A program made the translations under genes and the position numbers. Below, piece by piece: positions 1,617 through 28,558 of a stretch of 32,331 nt of DNA. Under the pieces are notes generated by a model that made no database searches, was not told the origin of the DNA, and saw nothing but the letters and a program-made list of their open reading frames with translations. Positions within the stretch are counted from its first letter, which is position 1. Every line of letters starts with the position of its first letter. The stretch spans positions 1 to 32,331 of the forward strand of contig JAPLYW010000005.1 in NCBI GenBank assembly GCA_026395335.1, written 5' to 3'. This stretch comes from Candidatus Shapirobacteria bacterium. Lineage in GTDB: Bacteria; Patescibacteriota; Microgenomatia; PFEM01; JAPLYW01.

Positions 1617-1628
1617 TTTGAGTCTCCG

Positions 1629-1665
1629 AAAAACAAGGTTCTGTCGTTTCGACAGGTCCTTATAT
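1629..1665 (-). repeat. Hairpin repeat copy 1 (groES-groEL intergenic, groEL leader)
   Basis: + strand AAACAAGGTTCTGTCGTTTCGACAGGTCCTTAT (1631-1663); inverted core CTGTCG-TTT-CGACAG. Same family as 6352-6383 and 23579-23610. Confidence 0.8.
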
Positions 1666-1671
1666 TGTACT

Positions 1672-6312: not shown

Positions 6313-6351
6313 AAATTTTTTTTCTATTTTGATCCGCCAGTTAGCGGAGAG

Positions 6352-6383
6352 AAACAAGGTTCTATCGTTTCGATAGGTTCTTA
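6352..6383 (-). repeat. Hairpin repeat copy 2 (leader of the NTase gene)
   Basis: + strand AAACAAGGTTCTATCGTTTCGATAGGTTCTTA; core CTATCG-TTT-CGATAG has a compensatory change relative to CTGTCG/CGACAG of the other copies. Confidence 0.8.
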
Positions 6384-7976
6384 CTTTGAATTTCCCAAAT
6401 CGTATTGGGAAAGAAGCTGTTTGACTCCTTGACTGGTTGTTTTCAAAATATCTGAAGCTGCGGACCCACCGTTTAAAGCATTAACTGCGTCTTCGTAATA
6501 TTTAATCATTTTATCGTTAATGCCATTATCAAAAGTCCCCGAGCAAAGATACCAAGTCTTGGCTTTAGCCGCTTGATTTATAAAAGGAGCCACTAAATTA
6601 TTATTTGTTAATAAACTGGCCATATCGGTTCTGGCATAAGGTTCACCAAATAATCGTACTTGTGACTGAGCTTGATAAAGTTTCTGAAGTTCCTCTTTAG
6701 AAGATAAAAATTTTAAAAAAGCCCAAGCTTCTTGCTGATGAGAGCTCCTTTTACCAATGCCTTCTATCCAAAAAGAAGCCCAGCCAATATCTGTCCCGGA
6801 TAATTGCGGAACAGGAATTACCCGAAAATCTAAATTAGGATTAATATTTTTAATTTCAAAAACATCCCAAGAATAGCCAAAATACATGGCTGTTTTGCCG
6901 GTAGCAAAAGCCAAAGTTGAAACAGGTAAAGTTTCATCCCAGACTCGATCTACATTATTAAAAATGGTATAAAAAGTTAAAGCATCTTCAGCTAAATTTC
7001 CGGTTGGTTGAGATAAATCTACGCCATTTTGTAACATCATTAATCCTAAAATATCAGACCAATGGTCAACGTTACTGGTATTGCCCAAAGCTACACCAGC
7101 CGTTTGAATTCGGCCGCTTTCATCCCGAACTGTCAAGTCCAAAGCTAGTTGTCTTAATTGATCCCAAGTGGTTGGCGGTGTTTTACCGGCAGCTTGAAAA
7201 ATTTGTTGATTATAAAAAAGAGCTAGATTGTCAATCTCAAGGGGTAAACCTAAAAAAGAAGTCCCGGAACGCAAATTTTCTTTAGCCACCGGATAAAAAG
7301 TATTCTCAAACTCCGTTGCACTCATTACTTCTGTGGGAACAGCTTGTAATTCATTTTTTAACATCGGTAACCAAGTAATATGGAAACGAAAAATATCCGG
7401 ACCTTCGTTACGAGCCAAAGCGGACTGTAATCTTTCCCGATATTCTTTCGGAGATTGCTGGGAATAACTAATCTTAATATTAGGATTTTTACTCTCCCAT
7501 TCACTAATAATTTCTTTCATAACATTCTCTGGCTCCCATAAACCCCAATAAGTCAAAGTTATTTGTTTTTGTTTTTGTAAACGAGGAATTAATAATTTAA
7601 AAACAGCAAAACCACCAAAAACCAAGATTATTAAAATTAATAAAATTGTCAGAATTTTTTTAAAACCGAACTTAGGCTTCTCATTCAAATTAAAATCATT
7701 AGACTCGTTAATTAATTTAGCGGCTGCTTCTTCCGGTGAAGAAAAACTTTTTTCTTCCGTCCCAAAATTTTGAGCATTTCCCTCAAAATTTTTTCCAAAA
7801 TCCTGCGTAGAAGAGTTATTTGTCTCAGGAAAAATTGGTTGCGCTTGATAAGAAGGTTGCGGAAAATCATTTTCAACTAGAGGTTTTTCTTCTTTAGGCG
7901 GTAAAGAAGTTTCTTTTTCTTCTGCAGGAAAAGAACTCGTTAAATCTTTTGACGGAAAAAAACTTTGGTCAGGCAT
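6381..7976 (-). CDS. Extracellular solute-binding protein family 1, membrane-anchored
   Basis: LTYWGLWEPENVMKEIISEWESKNPNIKISYSQQSPKEYRERLQSALARNEGPDIFRF; TM segment after a ~105 aa acidic/Pro-rich N-terminus. Confidence 0.88.
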   Translation of the reverse strand: MPDQSFFPSKDLTSSFPAEEKETSLPPKEEKPLVENDFPQPSYQAQPIFPETNNSSTQDFGKNFEGNAQNFGTEEKSFSSPEEAAAKLINESNDFNLNEKPKFGFKKILTILLILIILVFGGFAVFKLLIPRLQKQKQITLTYWGLWEPENVMKEIISEWESKNPNIKISYSQQSPKEYRERLQSALARNEGPDIFRFHITWLPMLKNELQAVPTEVMSATEFENTFYPVAKENLRSGTSFLGLPLEIDNLALFYNQQIFQAAGKTPPTTWDQLRQLALDLTVRDESGRIQTAGVALGNTSNVDHWSDILGLMMLQNGVDLSQPTGNLAEDALTFYTIFNNVDRVWDETLPVSTLAFATGKTAMYFGYSWDVFEIKNINPNLDFRVIPVPQLSGTDIGWASFWIEGIGKRSSHQQEAWAFLKFLSSKEELQKLYQAQSQVRLFGEPYARTDMASLLTNNNLVAPFINQAAKAKTWYLCSGTFDNGINDKMIKYYEDAVNALNGGSAASDILKTTSQGVKQLLSQYDLGNSK

Positions 7977-8029: not shown

Positions 8030-9823
8030 ATGAGTAAAAAAATGCAACCAGATAAAAAGAAAATATTAAAATCTTATTTTAAAATAAAAAATTGGTGGCA
8101 ACAAACTTTAGTTTACCTTTTAGCTTTTTTGTGTCTAATTATTTTTATCTATCATTTAGCTTATTGGCAAAAAATTTATCCAGGAGTCAAAATTTTAAAT
8201 CAAATCGTCGGTAATCAAACTGTTTCCGAAGCTATTGACATAATAAACCAAAAATTAAATCTACAAAAAACACCCTCTTTTTTAAATCTTTTTGCTGCCA
8301 AACAGCAATGGCAAATTAATCTTGAAGAGATTAGTTTTAGTTATGATCTAGAAAAAACTGTCCAAAATGCCTATCAAATCGGCAGGACAAAACGTACAAT
8401 TAAAGATCTTAAAACTAAATTTAAACTTTGGTTCAAAGAAGAAAATTTACCTTTAGCTTATCAGTTAAATCAAGATTCTTTAGAATCGCAAGTTGCCAGT
8501 ATCGCTTCACAGGTTTTTATTCCAGCCATTGAACCAACAATTAAAATTGATCGGACCCAAGAAAATCCAAAGATTATTATTGAATCGGGCAAAGACGGTC
8601 AGGAGCTAGATAAAAGAAAATTATTATCTTTAGTTAATAATCATTTAGCAGAAGTTGATTTCAGTTCAATTGAACTCCCTTTAATTGAAACTTCCCCTTC
8701 TTTGACTAACGAAGAAACTAAAAATACTCAACAGCGAGCAGAAAAATTTTTAAACAAAAAGATTGTCATCACCGCTGAAGAAAATAAGTGGGAACTTGAA
8801 GAAAATGACTTAATTGGTTTCCTTTCTTTTAAAAACGAATTTGCTCAAGAAAAAATTGCTAGTTGGACAGCCAATCTAGCGCTAACTGTTAACCGTTTAC
8901 CGGAAAATGCCACTTTCCAATTTAATGGGGGCCGAGCTACAGAGTTTCAACCGGCTAAAGATGGACTAACTCTTGATCAAAAAAAGACTACTGACTTAAT
9001 TACTAAAAGTCTTGAGCAAATTGAGAGAGGAGAAACCCCTCAAGAAATTAAATTACCATTAACTAGAACTCCACCCTTAGTTAAAACTGCAGATGTTAAT
9101 AATTTAGGTATTAAAGAATTACTCGGTAAAGGTGTTTCTTATTTCCAAGGTTCCATTGTCAACCGCATTCATAATATTCAATTGGCGACTTCTAAACTTA
9201 ACGGTATATTAATTCCGCCAGGGGAAATTTTTTCTTTTAACAAAAACTTAGGTGATGTTTCTGCCAGCACTGGTTATAAAGAAGCTTATATTATTAAAGA
9301 AGGACGAACGATCTTAGGTGACGGCGGCGGTGTTTGCCAAACTTCAACGACTCTTTTTCGCGCTGCTCTTCAAGCCGGTTTGCCGATTATTGAACGTCAT
9401 GCTCATGCTTATCGGGTAGGTTATTATGAACAAAATTCACCGGTTGGGATAGACGCAACTGTTTTTGATCCAACGGCTGATTTAAAAATTAAAAATGATA
9501 CTCCCGCTTATCTTTTATTACAAACTCATATTGATTTACAAAAGAAAATGCTGACTTATGAATTTTATGGTACTAACGACGGGCGAAAAGTGACTCTAAG
9601 CAAATCCAGAATCTGGGATCAAACTTCTCCACCGCCGGATTTATATCAGGATGACCCTACTTTACCTAAAGGCACAGTTAAGCAAGTTGACTGGCAAGCT
9701 TGGGGAGCTAAAGTCTCTTTTGATTATCAAGTAGAACGCAGCGGAGAAATTCTTCAAAAACAAACTTTTTACTCTAATTATCGTGCTTGGCAATCAGTTT
9801 ATTTAAGAGGGACCGGCCAATGA
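8030..9823 (+). CDS. VanW family protein
   Basis: IQLATSKLNGILIPPGEIFSFNKNLGDVSASTGYKEAYIIKEGRTILGDGGGVCQTSTTLFRAALQAGLPIIERHAHAYRVGYY is the VanW signature; N-terminal TM. Confidence 0.93.
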   Translation: MSKKMQPDKKKILKSYFKIKNWWQQTLVYLLAFLCLIIFIYHLAYWQKIYPGVKILNQIVGNQTVSEAIDIINQKLNLQKTPSFLNLFAAKQQWQINLEEISFSYDLEKTVQNAYQIGRTKRTIKDLKTKFKLWFKEENLPLAYQLNQDSLESQVASIASQVFIPAIEPTIKIDRTQENPKIIIESGKDGQELDKRKLLSLVNNHLAEVDFSSIELPLIETSPSLTNEETKNTQQRAEKFLNKKIVITAEENKWELEENDLIGFLSFKNEFAQEKIASWTANLALTVNRLPENATFQFNGGRATEFQPAKDGLTLDQKKTTDLITKSLEQIERGETPQEIKLPLTRTPPLVKTADVNNLGIKELLGKGVSYFQGSIVNRIHNIQLATSKLNGILIPPGEIFSFNKNLGDVSASTGYKEAYIIKEGRTILGDGGGVCQTSTTLFRAALQAGLPIIERHAHAYRVGYYEQNSPVGIDATVFDPTADLKIKNDTPAYLLLQTHIDLQKKMLTYEFYGTNDGRKVTLSKSRIWDQTSPPPDLYQDDPTLPKGTVKQVDWQAWGAKVSFDYQVERSGEILQKQTFYSNYRAWQSVYLRGTGQ

Positions 9824-10896
9824 TTATTTTAGGAATTGAAACCAGTTGCGATGAAACGGCCGTGGCAATTATTGAAAATGGGAGAAAAATTTTATCTAAC
9901 ATCGTTGCTTCTTCAATTGAACTTCATCAAAAAACCGGAGGTATTATTCCGGAGATTGCTGCCAGAGAACAATTAAAATATATTGTCCCTGCGATTAAAG
10001 AAGCTTTAGAAAAAAGCAGACTAAAACCTAAAGATTTAGACGCTTTAGCTGTCACCAGCGGTCCGGGTCTTATCGGCAGTTTATTGATTGGCGTCGAAAC
10101 TGCTAAAACTTTAGCTTATCTTTGGAAAAAACCGATTGTACCGATTAATCATTTACAAGCCCACCTGTACGCGAATTTCATTCGCGAGCATCCAGTATCC
10201 AGTAGCCCGCTTTGCGGGATTCCTACAGAATGTCAGTGTCCAGTTTTTCCTGCTATTGGGTTAGTTGTTTCCGGCGGCCATACCGATTTAATTTTAATGA
10301 AAAATCATAGCCAGATAAAATGGCTGGGCGGAACCAGAGATGATGCCGCTGGTGAATGTTTTGATAAATGCGCTCGTTTATTAAATTTAGGTTATCCCGG
10401 CGGCCCGGCTATTGCCGCCACAGCGGCAAAGTACATAGTACATAAAACAGAGAACAAAGTTAAATTACCCAGACCAATGATAAACGACGATAATTTTGAT
10501 TTTTCTTTTTCCGGTTTAAAAACAGCCCTTTTAAGCAGGATAAAAGAATTAGAAAATAAAAAAGTAAAAATAAATACTTATGAAATTGCTTACGAAATTC
10601 AGGAAGCGGTTACTGATGTCTTAGTTAAAAAAGTTCTAAAGGCTGTTTCTCAAAACCAAGTTAACTCTTTATTATTAGCTGGTGGAGTTACGGCTAATCC
10701 CCGCTTAAAAGAAAAAATGAAAGAAGCTTTAGAAAAACAGCAAATAAAGATACCTCTTTTTATTCCTGAGCCAAAATTTTGCACTGATAATGCCACTTTT
10801 GTGGCCAGTTGTGCTTTTTTTAATTTTGAGCCAGTCCCTTGGCAAAAAATCCAAGCTGACTCTAGCCTCGAAATCGAAGAAGTGATAAAATTTTAA
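9820..10896 (+). CDS. tsaD: tRNA N6-adenosine threonylcarbamoyltransferase TsaD
   Basis: MIILGIETSCDETAVAIIENG...GLIGSLLIGVETAKTLAY...INHLQAHLYA...LVVSGGHTDL. ATGA overlap with the vanW-like stop supports the 9820 start over 9787. Confidence 0.96.
   Translation: MIILGIETSCDETAVAIIENGRKILSNIVASSIELHQKTGGIIPEIAAREQLKYIVPAIKEALEKSRLKPKDLDALAVTSGPGLIGSLLIGVETAKTLAYLWKKPIVPINHLQAHLYANFIREHPVSSSPLCGIPTECQCPVFPAIGLVVSGGHTDLILMKNHSQIKWLGGTRDDAAGECFDKCARLLNLGYPGGPAIAATAAKYIVHKTENKVKLPRPMINDDNFDFSFSGLKTALLSRIKELENKKVKINTYEIAYEIQEAVTDVLVKKVLKAVSQNQVNSLLLAGGVTANPRLKEKMKEALEKQQIKIPLFIPEPKFCTDNATFVASCAFFNFEPVPWQKIQADSSLEIEEVIKF
10170..10244. repeat. Intragenic heptamer/palindrome composite element in tsaD
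   Basis: CGCGAAT-TTC-ATTCGCG hairpin (10170-10186), ATCCAGT x2 (10190-10203), CCCGC-TTT-GCGGG hairpin (10206-10218), TGTCAGT GTCCAGT (10231-10244); encodes ~20 extra residues before the VSGGHT motif. Confidence 0.7.
10413..10444. repeat. Second small intragenic palindrome + heptamer pair in tsaD
   Basis: TGCCGC-CACA-GCGGCA (10413-10428) followed by GTACATA GTACATA (10431-10444). Confidence 0.6.
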
Positions 10897-10902
10897 GACA
10901 AG

Positions 10903-12975
10903 ATGGAAAAAAATTACGAACCGCAAAAAACGGAAAATAAAATTTATCAATTTTGGGAAAAGGGTAATTATTTTCAACCAATTTTTGATAAAAAGAAAAA
11001 GTCTCAAAAACCTTTTGTGATTACTCTCCCCCCGCCCAATGTTACCGGCGAACTTCATTTAGGCCATGCTCTTTATTGTTTAGAAGATTTAATGATCCGC
11101 TATCATCGTATGTTGGGTGAGCCAACCTTATGGTTACCGGGCTTTGATCATGCTTCTATTGCTGTAGAATACCTAGTCAATAAACAATTAAAAAAAGAAG
11201 GAACTAATAAACAGTATATCGGCCGGGAAGAATTCTTAAAAAGAGCTAAAGATTTTGCTGATAAATCAAAAAGCCATATTAAAAATCAATTAATATCTTT
11301 AGGTTTTTCTCTAGATTGGACACACGAAGCCTATACCATGGATGAAAAACGATCCTTGGCAGTTAAAGAAGCTTTTAAAAGACTTTATGAAAAAGGTTTA
11401 ATTTATCAAGGTGAAAGGATTATTAATTGGTGCTCGAAATGCCAGACCGCTTTATCTGATTTAGAGAATGATTATCAGGAAGAAAAAGGAATTCTTTATT
11501 ATATAAAATACGGCTCCATAACCATTGCCACAACTAGGCCGGAAACAATGTTTGCTGATGTCGCTGTCGCAGTTAATCCTAAAGATAAACGTTATTCAAA
11601 ATTAATTGGCAAAAAAGTTTCCTTGCCATTAACTAATCGCAAAATTCCTATCATTTCCGATGAATCCGTTGATTTAAAATTCGGTACCGGAGCGTTAAAA
11701 ATCACTCCCGGCCACGATCCTTTGGATTTTGAAATCGGTCAAAAACATAAACTAGAAATACTAATCGTAATTAACACCAAGGGCCATTTAACTTCTTTAG
11801 CCGGAGATTATCAAAACTTAACTGTTAATGAAGCTAGAGAAAAAGTTGTTGCTGAATTAAAAAAACAGGGATTGTTAGAAAAAACTCAGGAATTTCAACA
11901 CGCAGTTGGCCATTGCCAAAGATGTGGAACAATTACTGAACCTTTAATATCTAAACAATGGTTTGTTAAAACTAAAACGTTAGCTAAACCAGCTATTGAA
12001 GCGATTAAAAAAGGCAATATTAAAATCATTCCCAAAAAATTTGAAAAAGTTTATTTAAATTGGATGGAAAACATTCGCGATTGGTGTATTTCCCGCCAAC
12101 TTTGGTGGGGACACCAAATTCCAATTGAAGATGAAACTGATGTTTTAGATACTTGGTTTTCTTCAGGACTTTGGCCTTTTGCCACTTTAGGCTGGCCTGA
12201 AAAGACCAAAGATTTAGAAAATTTTTACCCAACTACAGTCAGAGAAACTGCTTACGATATTTTATTCTTTTGGGTAGCCAGAGAAATTATGATGAGTCTA
12301 TTTTTAACCGGTAAAATCCCCTATGAGATCGTTTATCTCCATGGATTAGTTCGTGATAAACAAGGCCAAAAAATGAGCAAAACTAAAGGCAATGGTTTAG
12401 ACCCGTTGGAACTAACCCAAAAATATGGAACGGATGCCTTAAGAATGGCTTTAATTGTCGGAAATGCTCCGGGAAATGATTTTTCTCTAACTGAAGACAA
12501 AGTAAAAGCTTATCGTAATTTTGCCAATAAAATTTGGAATGCGAGCCGGTTTATTCTTTCATACGAACAGCAGAACATAGTGTCCCGCGAAGCGGGATCC
12601 CGCTCCGCGGGACAAAGAACAAAGAGCATAGGAAAACATAAAGACGACATTTGGATTTTGGAAGAAACAGAAAAAGTTATTAAAAAAGTCACTAGTTTTA
12701 TTAACCGTTATCGTTTTGATTTGGCAGCGGAAACTATATATCATTTTTTCTGGCACACTTTTTGTGACCAGTATTTGGAAATAAGTAAAAAGAGAAGAGA
12801 TGAAACCCAATTAACTTTAATACAGGTTTTAGAAACTTCTTTAAAATTACTTCACCCTTTTATGCCTTTTTTAACTGAAGAAATTTGGTGCCGAATGAAA
12901 AATATTTCAGTTGAGCATTCTCGAGACAAAGCGTCGGGACAAAAACCCCTTATTATCACCTCATGGCCAAAATGA
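10903..12975 (+). CDS. valS: Valyl-tRNA synthetase (short form)
   Basis: PPPNVTGELHLGHAL (HIGH), RDWCISRQLWWGHQIP, DVLDTWFSSGLWPF, KMSKTKGN (KMSKS), editing domain TIATTRPETMFADVAVAVNP. Confidence 0.96.
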   Translation: MEKNYEPQKTENKIYQFWEKGNYFQPIFDKKKKSQKPFVITLPPPNVTGELHLGHALYCLEDLMIRYHRMLGEPTLWLPGFDHASIAVEYLVNKQLKKEGTNKQYIGREEFLKRAKDFADKSKSHIKNQLISLGFSLDWTHEAYTMDEKRSLAVKEAFKRLYEKGLIYQGERIINWCSKCQTALSDLENDYQEEKGILYYIKYGSITIATTRPETMFADVAVAVNPKDKRYSKLIGKKVSLPLTNRKIPIISDESVDLKFGTGALKITPGHDPLDFEIGQKHKLEILIVINTKGHLTSLAGDYQNLTVNEAREKVVAELKKQGLLEKTQEFQHAVGHCQRCGTITEPLISKQWFVKTKTLAKPAIEAIKKGNIKIIPKKFEKVYLNWMENIRDWCISRQLWWGHQIPIEDETDVLDTWFSSGLWPFATLGWPEKTKDLENFYPTTVRETAYDILFFWVAREIMMSLFLTGKIPYEIVYLHGLVRDKQGQKMSKTKGNGLDPLELTQKYGTDALRMALIVGNAPGNDFSLTEDKVKAYRNFANKIWNASRFILSYEQQNIVSREAGSRSAGQRTKSIGKHKDDIWILEETEKVIKKVTSFINRYRFDLAAETIYHFFWHTFCDQYLEISKKRRDETQLTLIQVLETSLKLLHPFMPFLTEEIWCRMKNISVEHSRDKASGQKPLIITSWPK
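12582..12625. repeat. Intragenic 32-nt near-perfect palindrome plus heptamer pair in valS
   Basis: GTCCCGCGAAGCGGGATCCCGCTCCGCGGGAC (12582-12613, 30/32 self-complementary) overlapping ACAAAGA ACAAAGA (12612-12625); encodes VSREAGSRSAGQRTK. Confidence 0.75.
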
Positions 12976-12990
12976 CATACGAGAATAAAA

Positions 12991-13016
12991 GAGTTCACTC
13001 CGAGAGTTCACTCCGA
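12991..13016 (+). repeat. Perfect 13-bp tandem repeat GAGTTCACTCCGA x2
   Basis: Read directly at 12991-13003 and 13004-13016. Confidence 0.9.
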
Positions 13017-13116
13017 GGAGCAAAAGAACAGGAGAGTAAAAAGAGGAATCCTTGGATTTTAAACAAAACTCAAGCTATCCACCGAGTAATGAAACCTATG
13101 GCCGCCAGAATCGGAC

Positions 13117-18597: not shown

Positions 18598-19878
18598 TTA
18601 ACTTAATTTCGACCAAGACAAACCAAGAACAATAGTTAAAAGAAGCTGATTTTGTTGAAGAGTTAACCAATAATGGTCATTCAGCCCTAAAAACAACACC
18701 GTTGTTAACCCCAATATTAAGACTAGATAAGAAGACAATAAACGACTAAACAATCTACGATAAGTTAAGATTAAAAACCAAACAAAAATAATCAATCCGG
18801 TAAATCCAGTTTCTGCAGCTATAAGAAAATAAATATTATGAACCGGTTGTAGCCAATAAGTAAAACCGACTAAAGACCAATAATCAGGAAGACGAGTAAT
18901 AAAATTATTTAAGCCAACTCCCGACAAAGGAAAATTTCTAATCATTAGTAAAGCTGACTCCATTAATTGTTTTCTTTGGGAAAAAGCTTCATTAGTAGAA
19001 AAATAGGGGACAACAACAATTAATAAACAGCTAAAAAGAAAAAATAAAGAAGAAATAAAAAAAAGCTTTTTCTTTTGAAAATGATTTTTATGAATTATAA
19101 AATAAAAAACGGCCATTAAACTCAAAAACCAAACCGAGCGAGAGAAACTAACAATTATGGTTAATCCCCCTAAAATAAAAGCCAAGTATTTAATCGACTT
19201 GATTACTTTATTTTTTCCCACCGACCAATTACTTAATAAAATTAAACTTACTAGAAGAAAACCAGCCAAAGCATTAGGATGAGCAAAAATCCCATAAGGC
19301 CGCAAAACTAACCGACCATTAAGAATAGTTTTAGCAATTCCCGGAGTAGCTAAATCAAAAGTTCGTTCTCCCAACCACCAGAAAATACCGTTTAAAGAAC
19401 CTTGTTTTAAAAACTGGCCTAAAGCAATTAAAGAAGAATAGACTACTGCCCCGGCAAGTGGATACTGGATATAAGGAAACCTTGTTTCTCGAAGCTCGAA
19501 ATTAGATACTGGATACTGATTCTTAGCGATATAAAATCCAAGCAGGGTAAACTCAACGATTTTGGCAAATTTATAAAAGGCTACCCCTTGGTTTTGAGCT
19601 AAAAAAGCATTGACCAAAAGAAAAACAAAAATTGTAAAAACCCACCAGCAGCTCCTTAATATCTTACGTATTACATATCTCTTATCACGTATCCCCCAAA
19701 CCCACAAGAATAAAATTAAAAAAACTAAAATGTCGGTTAAATAAAGAGTAGGAGATAAATAATCAACTTTTAAACCTAAAACATAACTCCAATTTGGCCA
19801 AAAATGTTTTCCTAGCTGAAAAGGTAAAAGCAGTATTAATAACCAAAAAAAATTCTGATGAAGCTTTTTTTTAAACAT
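18598..19878 (-). CDS. O-antigen ligase family protein
   Basis: Multi-TM; GIFAHPNALAGFLLVSLILL, SFSRSVWFLSL, FPLSGVGLNNFI, QPVHNIYFLIAAETGFTGL are Wzy_C/WaaL-like motifs. Confidence 0.88.
   Translation of the reverse strand: MFKKKLHQNFFWLLILLLPFQLGKHFWPNWSYVLGLKVDYLSPTLYLTDILVFLILFLWVWGIRDKRYVIRKILRSCWWVFTIFVFLLVNAFLAQNQGVAFYKFAKIVEFTLLGFYIAKNQYPVSNFELRETRFPYIQYPLAGAVVYSSLIALGQFLKQGSLNGIFWWLGERTFDLATPGIAKTILNGRLVLRPYGIFAHPNALAGFLLVSLILLSNWSVGKNKVIKSIKYLAFILGGLTIIVSFSRSVWFLSLMAVFYFIIHKNHFQKKKLFFISSLFFLFSCLLIVVVPYFSTNEAFSQRKQLMESALLMIRNFPLSGVGLNNFITRLPDYWSLVGFTYWLQPVHNIYFLIAAETGFTGLIIFVWFLILTYRRLFSRLLSSYLVLILGLTTVLFLGLNDHYWLTLQQNQLLLTIVLGLSWSKLS
19459..19518. repeat. Intragenic heptamer/palindrome element in the O-antigen ligase
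   Basis: TGGATAC TGGATAT (19459-19472) - TTCTCGAAGCTCGAA core - GATACTG GATACTG (19505-19518). Confidence 0.65.
19667..19694. repeat. Degenerate heptanucleotide tandem repeat in the O-antigen ligase N-terminal region
   Basis: CGTATTA CATATCT CTTATCA CGTATCC, matching the NTase repeat at 6173-6215. Confidence 0.6.
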
Positions 19879-23383: not shown

Positions 23384-23580
23384 GAATTTAAAGTTTTACA
23401 CTTATCCACAATTAATTTAAAGTTATCAACTGGTTTTTAAACAGAAATAAAACCCAAAAGGCGTAATTAAAAAAGATGAATTATTCACTTATCCACAAGA
23501 CTACTAATACTACTATTTTAAACATAAAAGGTTGATAGAAGTAATTTTGTAGGATACAATTATTATATAATAATAAAATA
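23384..23580. other. Putative chromosomal origin (oriC) between dnaA and dnaN
   Basis: Perfect DnaA boxes TTATCCACA at 23402-23410 and 23489-23497, near-boxes at 23423 and 23481, a CTA-rich trio tract at 23501-23518, and AT-only sequence near 23559-23580. Confidence 0.8.
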
Positions 23581-23610
23581 AGAACCTGTCGAAACGACAG
23601 AACCTTGTTT
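23579..23610 (+). repeat. Hairpin repeat copy 3 (dnaN leader)
   Basis: TAAGAACCTGTCGAAACGACAGAACCTTGTTT; direct AGAACCT repeats flank GTCG-AAA-CGAC. Confidence 0.8.
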
Positions 23611-25789: not shown

Positions 25790-28558
25790 TTATGGTGCTG
25801 TAGTTTTGGTATTACATTGAGCCGAACTATTACAACTACGAGATGGTAAATTAAGAGGAATATTCTTAGGTTCCATTTTAAGGATACCATATGGTTGAAA
25901 TTCATAATGTAAGTGGGAAGCATAAGGGCCGCCACTGCTATCCACATAACCAATAATTTGTCCTTTTATAACTGAACCTGAAACACGATCTCTTTCTAAA
26001 AGGTGATAATATCTAGTGTGGAAAATTTTACCTTCGCAAGTTCCGGCAATATCAATATAATACCCTGCACCAAAAGTTTGATGCCCGATTGTAGCTGTAC
26101 CTTTATGAGTAGCGTAAACTGGTGTTCCTCTATTAGCACCAATATCAATAGCTTCTTCATGATGAGGACCATGGGAAGTTGCTCCTTCTGGACCTTGAGC
26201 AATTTTTCCACTAGTTGGCCAACCAGAAGGGCAATCCATTGGTGGGCTACCAATAATAACAACAGTACTAGTTGTTCCTGGGAAACTTCCATCAATACCT
26301 TCAACTGCAAGGGTAGCATTAATAGTGTTAGTAATGGCAGTATTTTCAAACCTGGAGTCAACTTGGGTAGTATAATCTACTTGCCATGTTGTTCCAGAAC
26401 TAATTTCTCTACCCTTTTCGTTTAAATCTTTGGAAAAAGAATATGTTGGGAGGGTTAATTGTTTCCCATCAGTGCTAAAAGAAAAATTATCTTTAATATT
26501 AATAATTCTTAGGCTATAACCATCATTAGCCTTAATTGTTACTATGTATTTAATTTCTGGATTATTACTAAGTTCACTATTGTCTATTTTTGTACGATCA
26601 GCAGTTTTTTCTAATTTAAAATAAGGTGACTCATAAGCAGAAACATTAGTGACAGTGGTTTCAGTTACTTTTGCAGGCAAGATAAAAGAGCCGCTGACTA
26701 CTAAAACAATAAACAAAGTCAAAACAGCTAGAGTACTTAAAACAATAATTAAAAAAAGAGCCACTGGAAAAATAACTGGAGCGGCAAGAGCCGTAAAAAA
26801 TACTCCAATTCCACCTCCAATAGCGCCTAAAGTTATTGGCGCCATAACAAAACTGGCTAAACCCAGACCACCGAAAACAAGGGGGATAATTCCGAATAAA
26901 TTAAAAGGGTTAGGGATAAAAACTAAAACAGCAATGCCAATACCAATAGCCATTAAGCCTTTTTCCGGATCATTAATAATTTGTCGAATAAAACCAATAA
27001 TTTTTCCTCCAACCTTTTTTAATAATTCAAAAACAATAGAAGCTGCGGCAATGACAACTCCGGGTACTCCTCCGGCGGCAGTTCCAGCCACAGTAGCGCC
27101 TATTTCAACGCCTAATCTAGTTGCTAACCAAGTAGCGGCTTTTTTAACCCCAGCCTTAACAGCTTTACCAGCCGCCGTTTTAGCTAGCCAGTGAACTATT
27201 GGCTGGCCAACTTTTTGTGAGAAAAATTGTCTTATTGGTGTTAAGAAGGAAGTATATTGACCTTTAGTAACAAATTTACTAAATCTTTCATAGGTATTAA
27301 TAATAAATTTAAAATGGTTAAGACCATTTTTAATAGAGCCGGCATAGCCGCCTTTTGACCAATCAGTATTATTTGGGAATGGTATTCTATCATAAGAAAT
27401 TCTCTGTCGGCCTGTAATCTTGTCGAATTTATAAAAGCGTTTTAAAAAAGCGGCTGCTGGTTTGTCTTTATAATGGACATTACCGTTTTTATCTTTATAT
27501 TCAATTTTTTGTTGTTCTTGGAAACGGGCAAATTTATCATTTAGTTTTACTAAAACCGGATGTTTTTCGGAAACTCCTAACTCTCTAAGACGTCGAATTG
27601 TGAATTCAAAATCTTCGGCAAAGATTCCTTGAGTAATCATGGCCTGCCATTCCGGAGAAGCATCGTCAGCCGCTAGTTTTAGAATTTTAGCCGGTAAAGT
27701 ATAAATTCCCCTTTCAATAAAGGCTGCAGTAGCTTTGGGATATAAAACTGTATAAAGTGGTAAAAAAGCTACGCCGTCATTTTGAGCTAATTGATCTAAA
27801 ATGGCTTGAGGGAGAGTTGCGTCTAAAATCGGCGAAGTGATTTTAGTAACTTCTTGAAAGGGTTTGATAATAGCTGGAGTAGCGGCAATTTCCTGAGCTT
27901 CAGTAATAAGGTTTTGTGTTTTCCCCCTAGTAGCTTCTTCTTTAATCTTTTTAAGCTCATCATTAACAATTTTTTCGGCTTCTTTAAGAACTTGATTTTT
28001 AGTAACTTTTTTAAGCTCATCATTAACAATTTTTTCGGCTTCTTTAAGAACTTGATTTTTAATTTCTTCGGTAAAAAAGTCTGCTTGCGCTACTGGAGGA
28101 AGAGAGGCAATAGTTTTATCAGTAGCATTTTTAGCCATTTCTTCCACCAAAGGTTTGGGAATTTGTATATTAGCCTTAGTAATAATTTTTCTAAATTCCT
28201 CATTAAAATTTCGGTAGCGTTTCTGATTTTCTTTAGAAGAAACTTTTTTCTGTAATTCTAATGTTTCTTTTTCTTTGTCTTTCTCATAAATTTCTACTAA
28301 TTCAGAAAGGTTAGGAGGAATATCTGGGGCTTCCTGGTTTTTTGATTGCGAAGAAATCTCCACGATTTTAACCGTCATTAAAGGTAAAAATTCCGGATCA
28401 TTAGGGTCAATATTGACGCCTAAAATTTGCGCTAGCTGGATAATTTTATCCAAAGCATCTTTTCTACTTATATCCTGATGGGGCCAATTTTTTTCTTGAA
28501 GATCATAAATAATGGGTAGAAATTCTTCGAGATTAACGAGTTCTTTTTCTTGGATCAT
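25790..28558 (-). CDS. T4SS-like multi-TM (VirB6-position) protein with C-terminal M23 peptidase
   Basis: 922 aa; central hydrophobic cluster; C-terminal HHEEAIDIGANRGTPVYATHKGTATIGHQTFGAGYYIDI...YYHL...HLHYEFQPYG (M23 HxxxxD and HxH). Confidence 0.85.
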   Translation of the reverse strand: MIQEKELVNLEEFLPIIYDLQEKNWPHQDISRKDALDKIIQLAQILGVNIDPNDPEFLPLMTVKIVEISSQSKNQEAPDIPPNLSELVEIYEKDKEKETLELQKKVSSKENQKRYRNFNEEFRKIITKANIQIPKPLVEEMAKNATDKTIASLPPVAQADFFTEEIKNQVLKEAEKIVNDELKKVTKNQVLKEAEKIVNDELKKIKEEATRGKTQNLITEAQEIAATPAIIKPFQEVTKITSPILDATLPQAILDQLAQNDGVAFLPLYTVLYPKATAAFIERGIYTLPAKILKLAADDASPEWQAMITQGIFAEDFEFTIRRLRELGVSEKHPVLVKLNDKFARFQEQQKIEYKDKNGNVHYKDKPAAAFLKRFYKFDKITGRQRISYDRIPFPNNTDWSKGGYAGSIKNGLNHFKFIINTYERFSKFVTKGQYTSFLTPIRQFFSQKVGQPIVHWLAKTAAGKAVKAGVKKAATWLATRLGVEIGATVAGTAAGGVPGVVIAAASIVFELLKKVGGKIIGFIRQIINDPEKGLMAIGIGIAVLVFIPNPFNLFGIIPLVFGGLGLASFVMAPITLGAIGGGIGVFFTALAAPVIFPVALFLIIVLSTLAVLTLFIVLVVSGSFILPAKVTETTVTNVSAYESPYFKLEKTADRTKIDNSELSNNPEIKYIVTIKANDGYSLRIINIKDNFSFSTDGKQLTLPTYSFSKDLNEKGREISSGTTWQVDYTTQVDSRFENTAITNTINATLAVEGIDGSFPGTTSTVVIIGSPPMDCPSGWPTSGKIAQGPEGATSHGPHHEEAIDIGANRGTPVYATHKGTATIGHQTFGAGYYIDIAGTCEGKIFHTRYYHLLERDRVSGSVIKGQIIGYVDSSGGPYASHLHYEFQPYGILKMEPKNIPLNLPSRSCNSSAQCNTKTTAP
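27948..28060. repeat. 60-bp-period tandem duplication inside the VirB6-like/M23 gene
   Basis: 27948-28000 and 28008-28060 are identical; encodes NQVLKEAEKIVNDELKK twice. Confidence 0.92.

What the first reader, a model, noticed from the sequence alone, without database searches (positions are those of the whole stretch)
10170..10244. Composite heptamer-palindrome element inserted in frame in tsaD
Seen: two hairpins and two heptamer pairs (ATCCAGT x2; TGTCAGT GTCCAGT) packed into 75 nt. Together they encode REHPVSSSPLCGIPTECQCP between HLYANF and the VSGGHT motif, where TsaD proteins normally have only a few residues. The order heptamers - palindrome - heptamers recurs in the O-antigen ligase (19459-19518), with recognisably similar flanks (TCCAGTATCCA, TTCCT). 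It looks like a small mobile or palindromic element tolerated inside an essential gene, analogous in concept to Rickettsia palindromic elements.
Basis: partly seen in the sequence, partly recalled or inferred. Interest (0 to 1): 0.75.

Follow-up and report, generated by a model that had tools for sequence, protein, structure and literature searches.

The report
Repeat-built in-frame insert in tsaD
A tiny ultra-small-bacterium genome carries an extra 15 amino acids in the essential tRNA-modification protein TsaD, built from short DNA repeats (a doubled 7-letter word and little hairpins), and related bacteria fill the same floppy loop again and again with unrelated 7- or 8-letter repeats, so the loop looks like a natural landing or growth site for small selfish or slippage-made repeats.

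Summary
The insert is real. Window TsaD has 22 residues between HLYANF and FPAIGL-VSGGHT, against 7 in its closest held relative (66% identical). The loop is 18-27 residues in 66 non-Patescibacteria and 15-57 in Patescibacteria; window 34. AlphaFold gives pLDDT <50 only at residues 126-138 and the C-terminal tip. The two hairpins and the ATCCAGT pair are there; the second "heptamer pair" is weak (4/7).

It is not one mobile 75-nt element: the sequence is single-copy, and the heptamer pair occurs at only two sites. The wzy "copy" shares the flanking heptamers, but its core is a truncated copy of another dispersed repeat (>=34 copies), and it too is an insertion. The inner palindrome does belong to a repeated set: TCCCGC-NNN-GCGGGA-like, 13 sites versus 0 controls, also in valS and dnaJ.

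Class-wide, period-7/8 arrays are strongly over-represented (78 and 21 versus 2 each), and tsaD is a hotspot: 22 arrays in 30 kb versus 5 in 82 kb of flanks, at five loops.

Best reading: a tolerant TsaD loop repeatedly filled with heptamer arrays and small palindromes, Rickettsia-palindrome-like in concept. Mechanism inferred, not shown.

The parts
9820..10896 (+). tsaD (tRNA A37 threonylcarbamoyltransferase subunit), 358 aa
   Evidence: TIGR03723 390.6 bits; AlphaFold model pLDDT 91.6 matches TsaD/YgjD structures 8ifx, 4wq5, 4ydu
10180..10245 (+). loop between YANF and FPAIGL, residues 121-142; net +15 aa (45 nt) over G001
   Evidence: alignment with 29 class members; loop length 34 vs 18-27 in 66 non-Patescibacteria; pLDDT <50 at residues 126-138
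10170..10186 (+). hairpin 1 CGCGAAT-TTC-ATTCGCG; left arm is conserved coding sequence, right arm is inside the insert
10190..10203 (+). heptamer pair ATCCAGT x2
10206..10218 (+). triloop palindrome CCCGC-TTT-GCGGG, of a type repeated in this genome
   Evidence: CCCGCNNNGCGGG 5 vs 0 control in own genome; TCCCGCNNNGCGGGA with up to 2 mismatches 13 vs 0
10231..10244 (+). degenerate heptamers TGTCAGT GTCCAGT (4/7 to each other; second is 6/7 to ATCCAGT)
   Evidence: sequence
10430..10456 (+). second heptamer array in tsaD (AGTACATAGTACATAAAACAGAGAACA), in the loop at residues ~204-213 that also carries arrays in other genomes
12583..12612 (+). two tandem 15-nt palindromes TCCCGCGAAGCGGGA TCCCGCTCCGCGGGA in frame in valS, followed by ACAAAGA x2 (12612-12625); that loop is shorter in most relatives
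   Evidence: antisense similarity to a dispersed-repeat copy, L279
19459..19518 (-). in-frame +10 aa insert in O-antigen ligase-like gene: heptamers GATACTG flank a truncated copy of the dispersed repeat, ATAAGGAAACCTTGTTTCTCGAAGCTCGAAATTAG (read on the + strand)
   Evidence: absent from 9 relatives; score 23 against a dispersed-repeat copy versus a background 95% of 11
1628..1669 (-). copy of the dispersed repeat, ending directly at the start codon of a groEL-like gene
6326..6387 (-). copy of the dispersed repeat with both hairpins
23568..23610 (+). copy of the dispersed repeat upstream of an ATG

Best explanation
The segment is a lineage-specific, in-frame insertion in a solvent-exposed, disordered loop of TsaD, assembled from short repeat modules and not brought in as one 75-nt mobile element. 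Two processes feed it. (i) Formation of tandem arrays with a 7- (or 8-) nucleotide period, which runs through this class of Patescibacteria and strongly hits the same few TsaD loops with a different word in each genome, most simply slippage at a preferred 7-nt step. (ii) Gain of small triloop palindromes (here CCCGC-TTT-GCGGG) of a type that is repeated in this genome, both between genes and in frame inside genes (valS, dnaJ). The first hairpin could come from a fold-back copy of the preceding conserved codons. The loop lies between the metal-binding helix (HxxxH) and the VSGGHT strand but is itself unconstrained, so in-frame additions survive. Shown: insertion, predicted loop disorder, array excess and hotspot, palindrome repetition. 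Inferred: slippage, fold-back copying, and that the palindrome was copied in.
For: Insertion and loop variability. Disordered only here in an otherwise confident model, on a known TsaD fold. Period spectrum in 1.5 Mb from 27 genomes: period 7, 78 arrays vs 2 in Markov controls; period 8, 21 vs 2; periods 5, 10, 11, 13, 1-5 each; 61 of 98 arrays lie in long open frames. tsaD hotspot: 17 period-7 and 5 period-8 arrays in 30 kb of tsaD from 29 genomes vs 5 in 82 kb of flanks, and only one array of any other period from 5 to 13 in tsaD. All 22 fall at five loops, seven of them at the loop of the finding. Words differ between genomes. Palindrome type: about 155 vs 16 control sites over 59 genomes, 13 vs 0 in the own genome. 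The 131-nt stretch is single-copy.
Against: The own genome is poor in heptamer arrays (1 in 138 kb at the threshold used), so the array process is weak or old here. The tsaD palindrome shares only about 15 nt with other copies, too little to prove copying. No relative of the same genus or family was available, so order and age of the steps are unknown. An exact two-copy heptamer by itself is near chance.
Confidence: 0.66

Rival explanations
1. One composite mobile palindromic element (heptamers-palindrome-heptamers), with copies in tsaD and wzy, analogous to a Rickettsia palindromic element.
For: Both sites are lineage-specific in-frame insertions with the same heptamer pair in the same reading phase; wzy site is the top match in 138 kb; the genome does have small dispersed palindromic repeats, some in frame in genes.
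Against: No second copy of the 131-nt stretch. The core of the wzy insert belongs to another repeat family, to which the tsaD insert shows no similarity beyond the palindrome. Heptamer pair at only two sites genome-wide.
Confidence: 0.15
2. Ordinary loop-length drift; the repeats inside are coincidental low-information matches.
For: The loop varies in length across the class; two-copy heptamers occur by chance at about 0.5 per window.
Against: Palindrome type 13 vs 0 controls; folding z -4.17; arrays in tsaD are almost exclusively period 7/8 and 12-fold denser than in flanking DNA.
Confidence: 0.12
3. The extended loop is a selected feature of TsaD in these bacteria, for example contacting TsaB, TsaE or tRNA.
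For: Many members of the class have long loops at the same places.
Against: Loop sequences are unrelated between genomes, predicted disordered, and the closest relative lacks the segment.
Confidence: 0.05
4. Assembly or binning artefact in a metagenome-derived genome.
For: 457 kb in 30 contigs, draft.
Against: Frame stays open and the gene is intact; similar arrays are in complete single-contig genomes of the class, such as G009 and G034.
Confidence: 0.02

Closest known systems
Rickettsia palindromic elements (RPE; Ogata 2000, 2002; reviewed in PMC2229807, PMC3733652)
   Same: Short palindrome-bearing DNA in frame inside conserved protein genes as well as between genes; tolerated by the protein
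   Different: RPEs are 105-146 bp families with recognisable full-length copies and, in R. conorii, a CGTC tag; the tsaD insert is single-copy, mixed with heptamers, and has no CGTC
Cyanobacterial heptameric short tandem repeats (STRR) and small dispersed repeats embedded in them (Elhai 2008; from memory, paper not held)
   Same: Heptameric tandem arrays, with a small palindromic unit sitting inside or beside them
   Different: Here many arrays lie inside conserved coding genes; no shared sequence family was tested
Heptameric repeats in Xanthomonas and Nostoc (PMC4692102) and TAACTGA repeats of Beggiatoaceae (PMC4679880)
   Same: Over-representation of 7-nt tandem units; 7-nt step attributed to polymerase slippage in the literature cited there
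   Different: Those are mostly intergenic with one preferred word per genome; here words vary and tsaD loops are a hotspot
REP / REPIN elements (GTAG-tagged, RAYT-mobilised; PMC3733652, PMC3116915)
   Same: Small high-copy hairpins, often between genes; the tsaD palindrome happens to be preceded by GTAG
   Different: Other copies of the palindrome lack the GTAG tag; no RAYT motif in the part of the genome held
Tandem repeats in Borg extrachromosomal elements (PMC9879509)
   Same: Tandem repeats inside genes giving disordered protein segments
   Different: Borg repeats inside genes all have unit lengths divisible by three; here the units are 7 and 8 nt

Membership tests
Rickettsia palindromic element-like family | In-frame insertion in a conserved protein gene, absent from relatives | tested here: met
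Rickettsia palindromic element-like family | Multiple recognisable full-length copies in the genome | tested here: not met
   131-nt query finds only itself; wzy core is another family
Rickettsia palindromic element-like family | Terminal CGTC tag reported for R. conorii elements | tested here: not met
   no CGTC in 10170-10244; definition from PMC3733652
REP (GTAG superfamily) | GTAG tetranucleotide at one end of the hairpin across the family | tested here: not met
   GTAG precedes the tsaD palindrome, but not the valS, dnaJ or intergenic copies
REP (GTAG superfamily) | RAYT tyrosine transposase in the genome | tested here: inconclusive
   no PNHxHL-type motif in the stretches held, only part of the genome
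Heptameric tandem repeat arrays | At least two tandem copies of a 7-nt unit | tested here: met
   10190-10204, 2.1 copies, 100%
Heptameric tandem repeat arrays | Genome-wide over-representation of period 7 | tested here: not met
   own genome 1 array in 138 kb; met in class members such as G013, G100, G038
Mobile element with target-site duplication | Flanking direct repeat made on insertion | tested here: inconclusive
   wzy insert is flanked by GATACTGGATA on both sides, but this may be a pre-existing array; tsaD flanks are only partly alike

The most novel reading that the evidence does not exclude
In this class of Patescibacteria a dedicated process writes 7- and 8-nt tandem arrays and small exchangeable hairpins into genes, with tsaD loops as preferred sites, so that an essential tRNA-modification enzyme is under continual in-frame insertion by units that are not multiples of three; the hairpin-bearing repeat is a mobile leader that also docks exactly at start codons.
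Probability: 0.2. Interest if true: 0.85.

Novelty: new variant of a known kind. Interest (0 to 1): 0.56.

Why it matters
Small selfish or slippage-made repeats inside essential genes are well known mainly from Rickettsia and Wolbachia. Here a similar outcome is seen in the streamlined Patescibacteria, with two unusual points: the units are 7 and 8 nt, not multiples of three, and one essential gene, tsaD, is a strong hotspot with unrelated words in each lineage. It offers a natural set of loop insertions for testing how conserved enzymes tolerate new segments, and it warns that loop peptides in these proteins can be repeat-derived and not conserved biology. It also brought up a dispersed, covarying hairpin leader without an Rfam match.

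Tried and rejected
Blast of the 131-nt stretch in the own genome: only itself. Heptamer pattern in 280 class genomes: 3 genomes with a match vs 1 with a control match, so ATCCAGT itself is not a class-wide element. General over-representation of triloop hairpins: modest at best. Inverted pairing of arrays as a general rule: clear in G100 and in G013's tsaD inserts, but only 11 of 77 heptamer arrays overall. Rfam: nothing in the window or in ten loci with the dispersed repeat. First tsaD alignment mishandled reverse-strand loci and was replaced; first wzy alignment picked wrong frames for some relatives and was replaced. Elhai 2008 could not be read. Two region requests failed on length. Several held stretches, such as those of G001, contain masked N runs, so counts there are lower bounds.

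Full report
What is there. The window is a contig of a 457,599-base draft genome, by its nearest named relatives a member of the Patescibacteria close to Levyibacteriota. The gene at 9820-10896 is tsaD. Between YANF and FPAIGLVVSGGHT the window reads IREHPVSSSPLCGIPTECQCPV. The closest relative held, G001 (same order, 66% identical), reads LEKKKPQ, so the window has 15 residues (45 nt) more. The equivalent loop is 18-27 residues long in 66 non-Patescibacteria, 15-57 in 38 Patescibacteria, and 34 in the window. The insert is therefore real, and unusual outside this group.

The repeats. The two hairpins and the ATCCAGT pair are at the stated coordinates, and the stretch folds as single-stranded DNA better than any of 200 shuffles. 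The second heptamer pair is weak. The left arm of the first hairpin is the conserved YANF codons, so only its right arm is new; this would fit a fold-back copy, but that is inference.

Not one element. The 131-nt stretch occurs once in the genome. TATCCAGTATCCAG with up to one mismatch occurs twice, in tsaD and in the O-antigen ligase-like gene. The ligase site is also a lineage-specific in-frame insert, +10 aa against nine relatives, and it is the best match to the 75-mer in 138 kb sampled. Its core, however, read on the + strand as ATAAGGAAACCTTGTTTCTCGAAGCTCGAAATTAG, is a truncated copy of another repeat (score 23 against a background 95% of 11). That repeat gives 49 blast hits at E<=10 in the own genome. 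A strict pattern for it, AAGAACC-N5-30-GAACCTTG, has 34 sites versus 0 controls there and 0-5 in other class genomes.

The palindrome. CCCGCNNNGCGGG occurs at 5 sites versus 0 controls in the own genome, and at about 155 versus 16 over 59 class genomes (my sum of the table). With two mismatches allowed on TCCCGCNNNGCGGGA there are 13 sites versus 0; some of these are imperfect and may be ordinary coding sequence. They include a tandem pair in frame in valS (12583-12612), whose loop is longer than in most relatives, and a tandem pair in the glycine-rich part of DnaJ. A similar tandem pair lies in a long open frame of G038. Some matches in other genomes, such as those in radA-like genes, look like native codons. 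The tsaD palindrome shares about 15 nt with the closest dispersed copy, so copying is plausible, not proven.

The heptamers. In 1.5 Mb from 27 genomes of the class, degenerate tandem arrays show a sharp excess at period 7 (78 vs 2 in third-order Markov controls) and a smaller one at period 8 (21 vs 2). Periods 5, 10, 11 and 13 give 1-5 each; period 9 gives 27, as expected of coding units of three. Genomes differ greatly, and the own genome is poor in arrays (1 in 138 kb, itself in tsaD at 10430). Of 98 arrays, 61 lie in open frames of at least 150 codons. Around tsaD of 29 genomes there are 22 period-7/8 arrays in 30 kb of tsaD against 5 in 82 kb of flanks, with one array of any other period from 5 to 13 inside tsaD. 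The 22 fall at five places, near window residues 68, 125-136, 207-211, 248-251 and 304-307; seven are at the loop of the finding, and 38% of array residues lie in insertion columns against 12% expected. The words are mostly unrelated between genomes, so this is recurrent independent filling of the same loops. In G013 two tsaD loops hold 85%-identical copies of a 114-nt octamer element that has further matches in that genome. In G100 an 80-96-nt element of inverted heptamer arrays is present at four places, three of them in long open frames including one with the LepA-type motif NLIDTPGHVDFSYEV. In those genomes dispersal of array-based elements is therefore likely. The same kind of arrays also occurs in some Chloroflexota, Poribacteria and other genomes.

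Structure. The AlphaFold model of window TsaD is confident (mean pLDDT 91.6) except at residues 126-138 and the last three residues, and it matches TsaD/YgjD structures. The insert is a disordered loop between the helix with the two conserved histidines (H111, H115) and the strand before VSGGHT. Neutral tolerance is the simplest view; function was not tested.

Mechanism and comparison. I favour stepwise growth: 7-nt slippage plus gain of a small palindrome, kept because the loop is tolerant. This is inferred. It works like the Rickettsia palindromic elements, in which palindromic DNA is fused in frame into conserved genes and tolerated (PMC2229807), but it fails the test of full-length copies and lacks the CGTC tag (PMC3733652). 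Heptameric repeats are known from Xanthomonas, Nostoc and Beggiatoaceae, mostly between genes (PMC4692102, PMC4679880). Borg repeats inside genes have units divisible by three (PMC9879509), in contrast to the 7- and 8-nt units here. No paper on such arrays in Patescibacteria was found in the held library; that is not proof of absence.

By-catch. The dispersed repeat of the own genome has a variable but nearly always self-complementary hairpin in a constant frame. In 20 of 34 copies scanned it lies within 60 nt upstream of a start codon, usually at 11-12 nt, or 20-21 nt when a second hairpin is present, before genes whose first residues read as GroEL, EF-G, DnaJ and ribosomal proteins (gene names by eye except DnaJ). 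It has no Rfam match. Whether it is a regulatory leader, a mobile repeat or both is open.

Noticed in passing
G000 genome-wide; window 1628-1669 (-), 6326-6387 (-), 23568-23610 (+), 19459-19518: Dispersed repeat AATAAGAACC-[hairpin]-GAACCTTGTTTCTC-[hairpin or GAAGAC]-TCRAAAT, at least 34 copies, hairpin stems vary but stay complementary, often ending exactly at a start codon (11-12 or 20-21 nt spacing); no Rfam match; expanded in this genome relative to the class.
   Followed up: partly
L328:2088-2170 (G000 contig 7, about 11419-11500): Copy of the dispersed repeat lies in frame in a DRG-like GTPase gene between the NKVD and ISAE motifs (LRTSDVTSENLVFANAQIIDNPPAGGEG); not compared with close relatives.
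   Followed up: partly
L016:1392-1505 and 1659-1772 (G013 tsaD): Two 114-nt copies, 85% identical, of an octamer-array element with inverted arms in two loops of one tsaD gene, with further matches elsewhere in that genome.
   Followed up: partly
G100: L142:13994-14072, L143:10207-10290, L145:8251-8334, L141:10536-10611: Element of 80-96 nt made of GTATCCA-type heptamers, an A-rich spacer and the inverted heptamers, four copies, three in long open frames, strongly self-folding (z -3.9 to -5.4).
   Followed up: partly
L078, L080, L084, L067 (non-Patescibacteria): Period-7 arrays with similar words, some facing each other as inverted pairs (L084 1225-1254 and 1273-1304).
   Followed up: no
window 27948-28061: Perfect 60-nt tandem repeat, 1.9 copies, inside the 922-aa open frame on the minus strand (20-residue repeat).
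   Followed up: no
window 12990-13017: Perfect 13-nt tandem repeat AGAGTTCACTCCG just after the end of valS.
   Followed up: no
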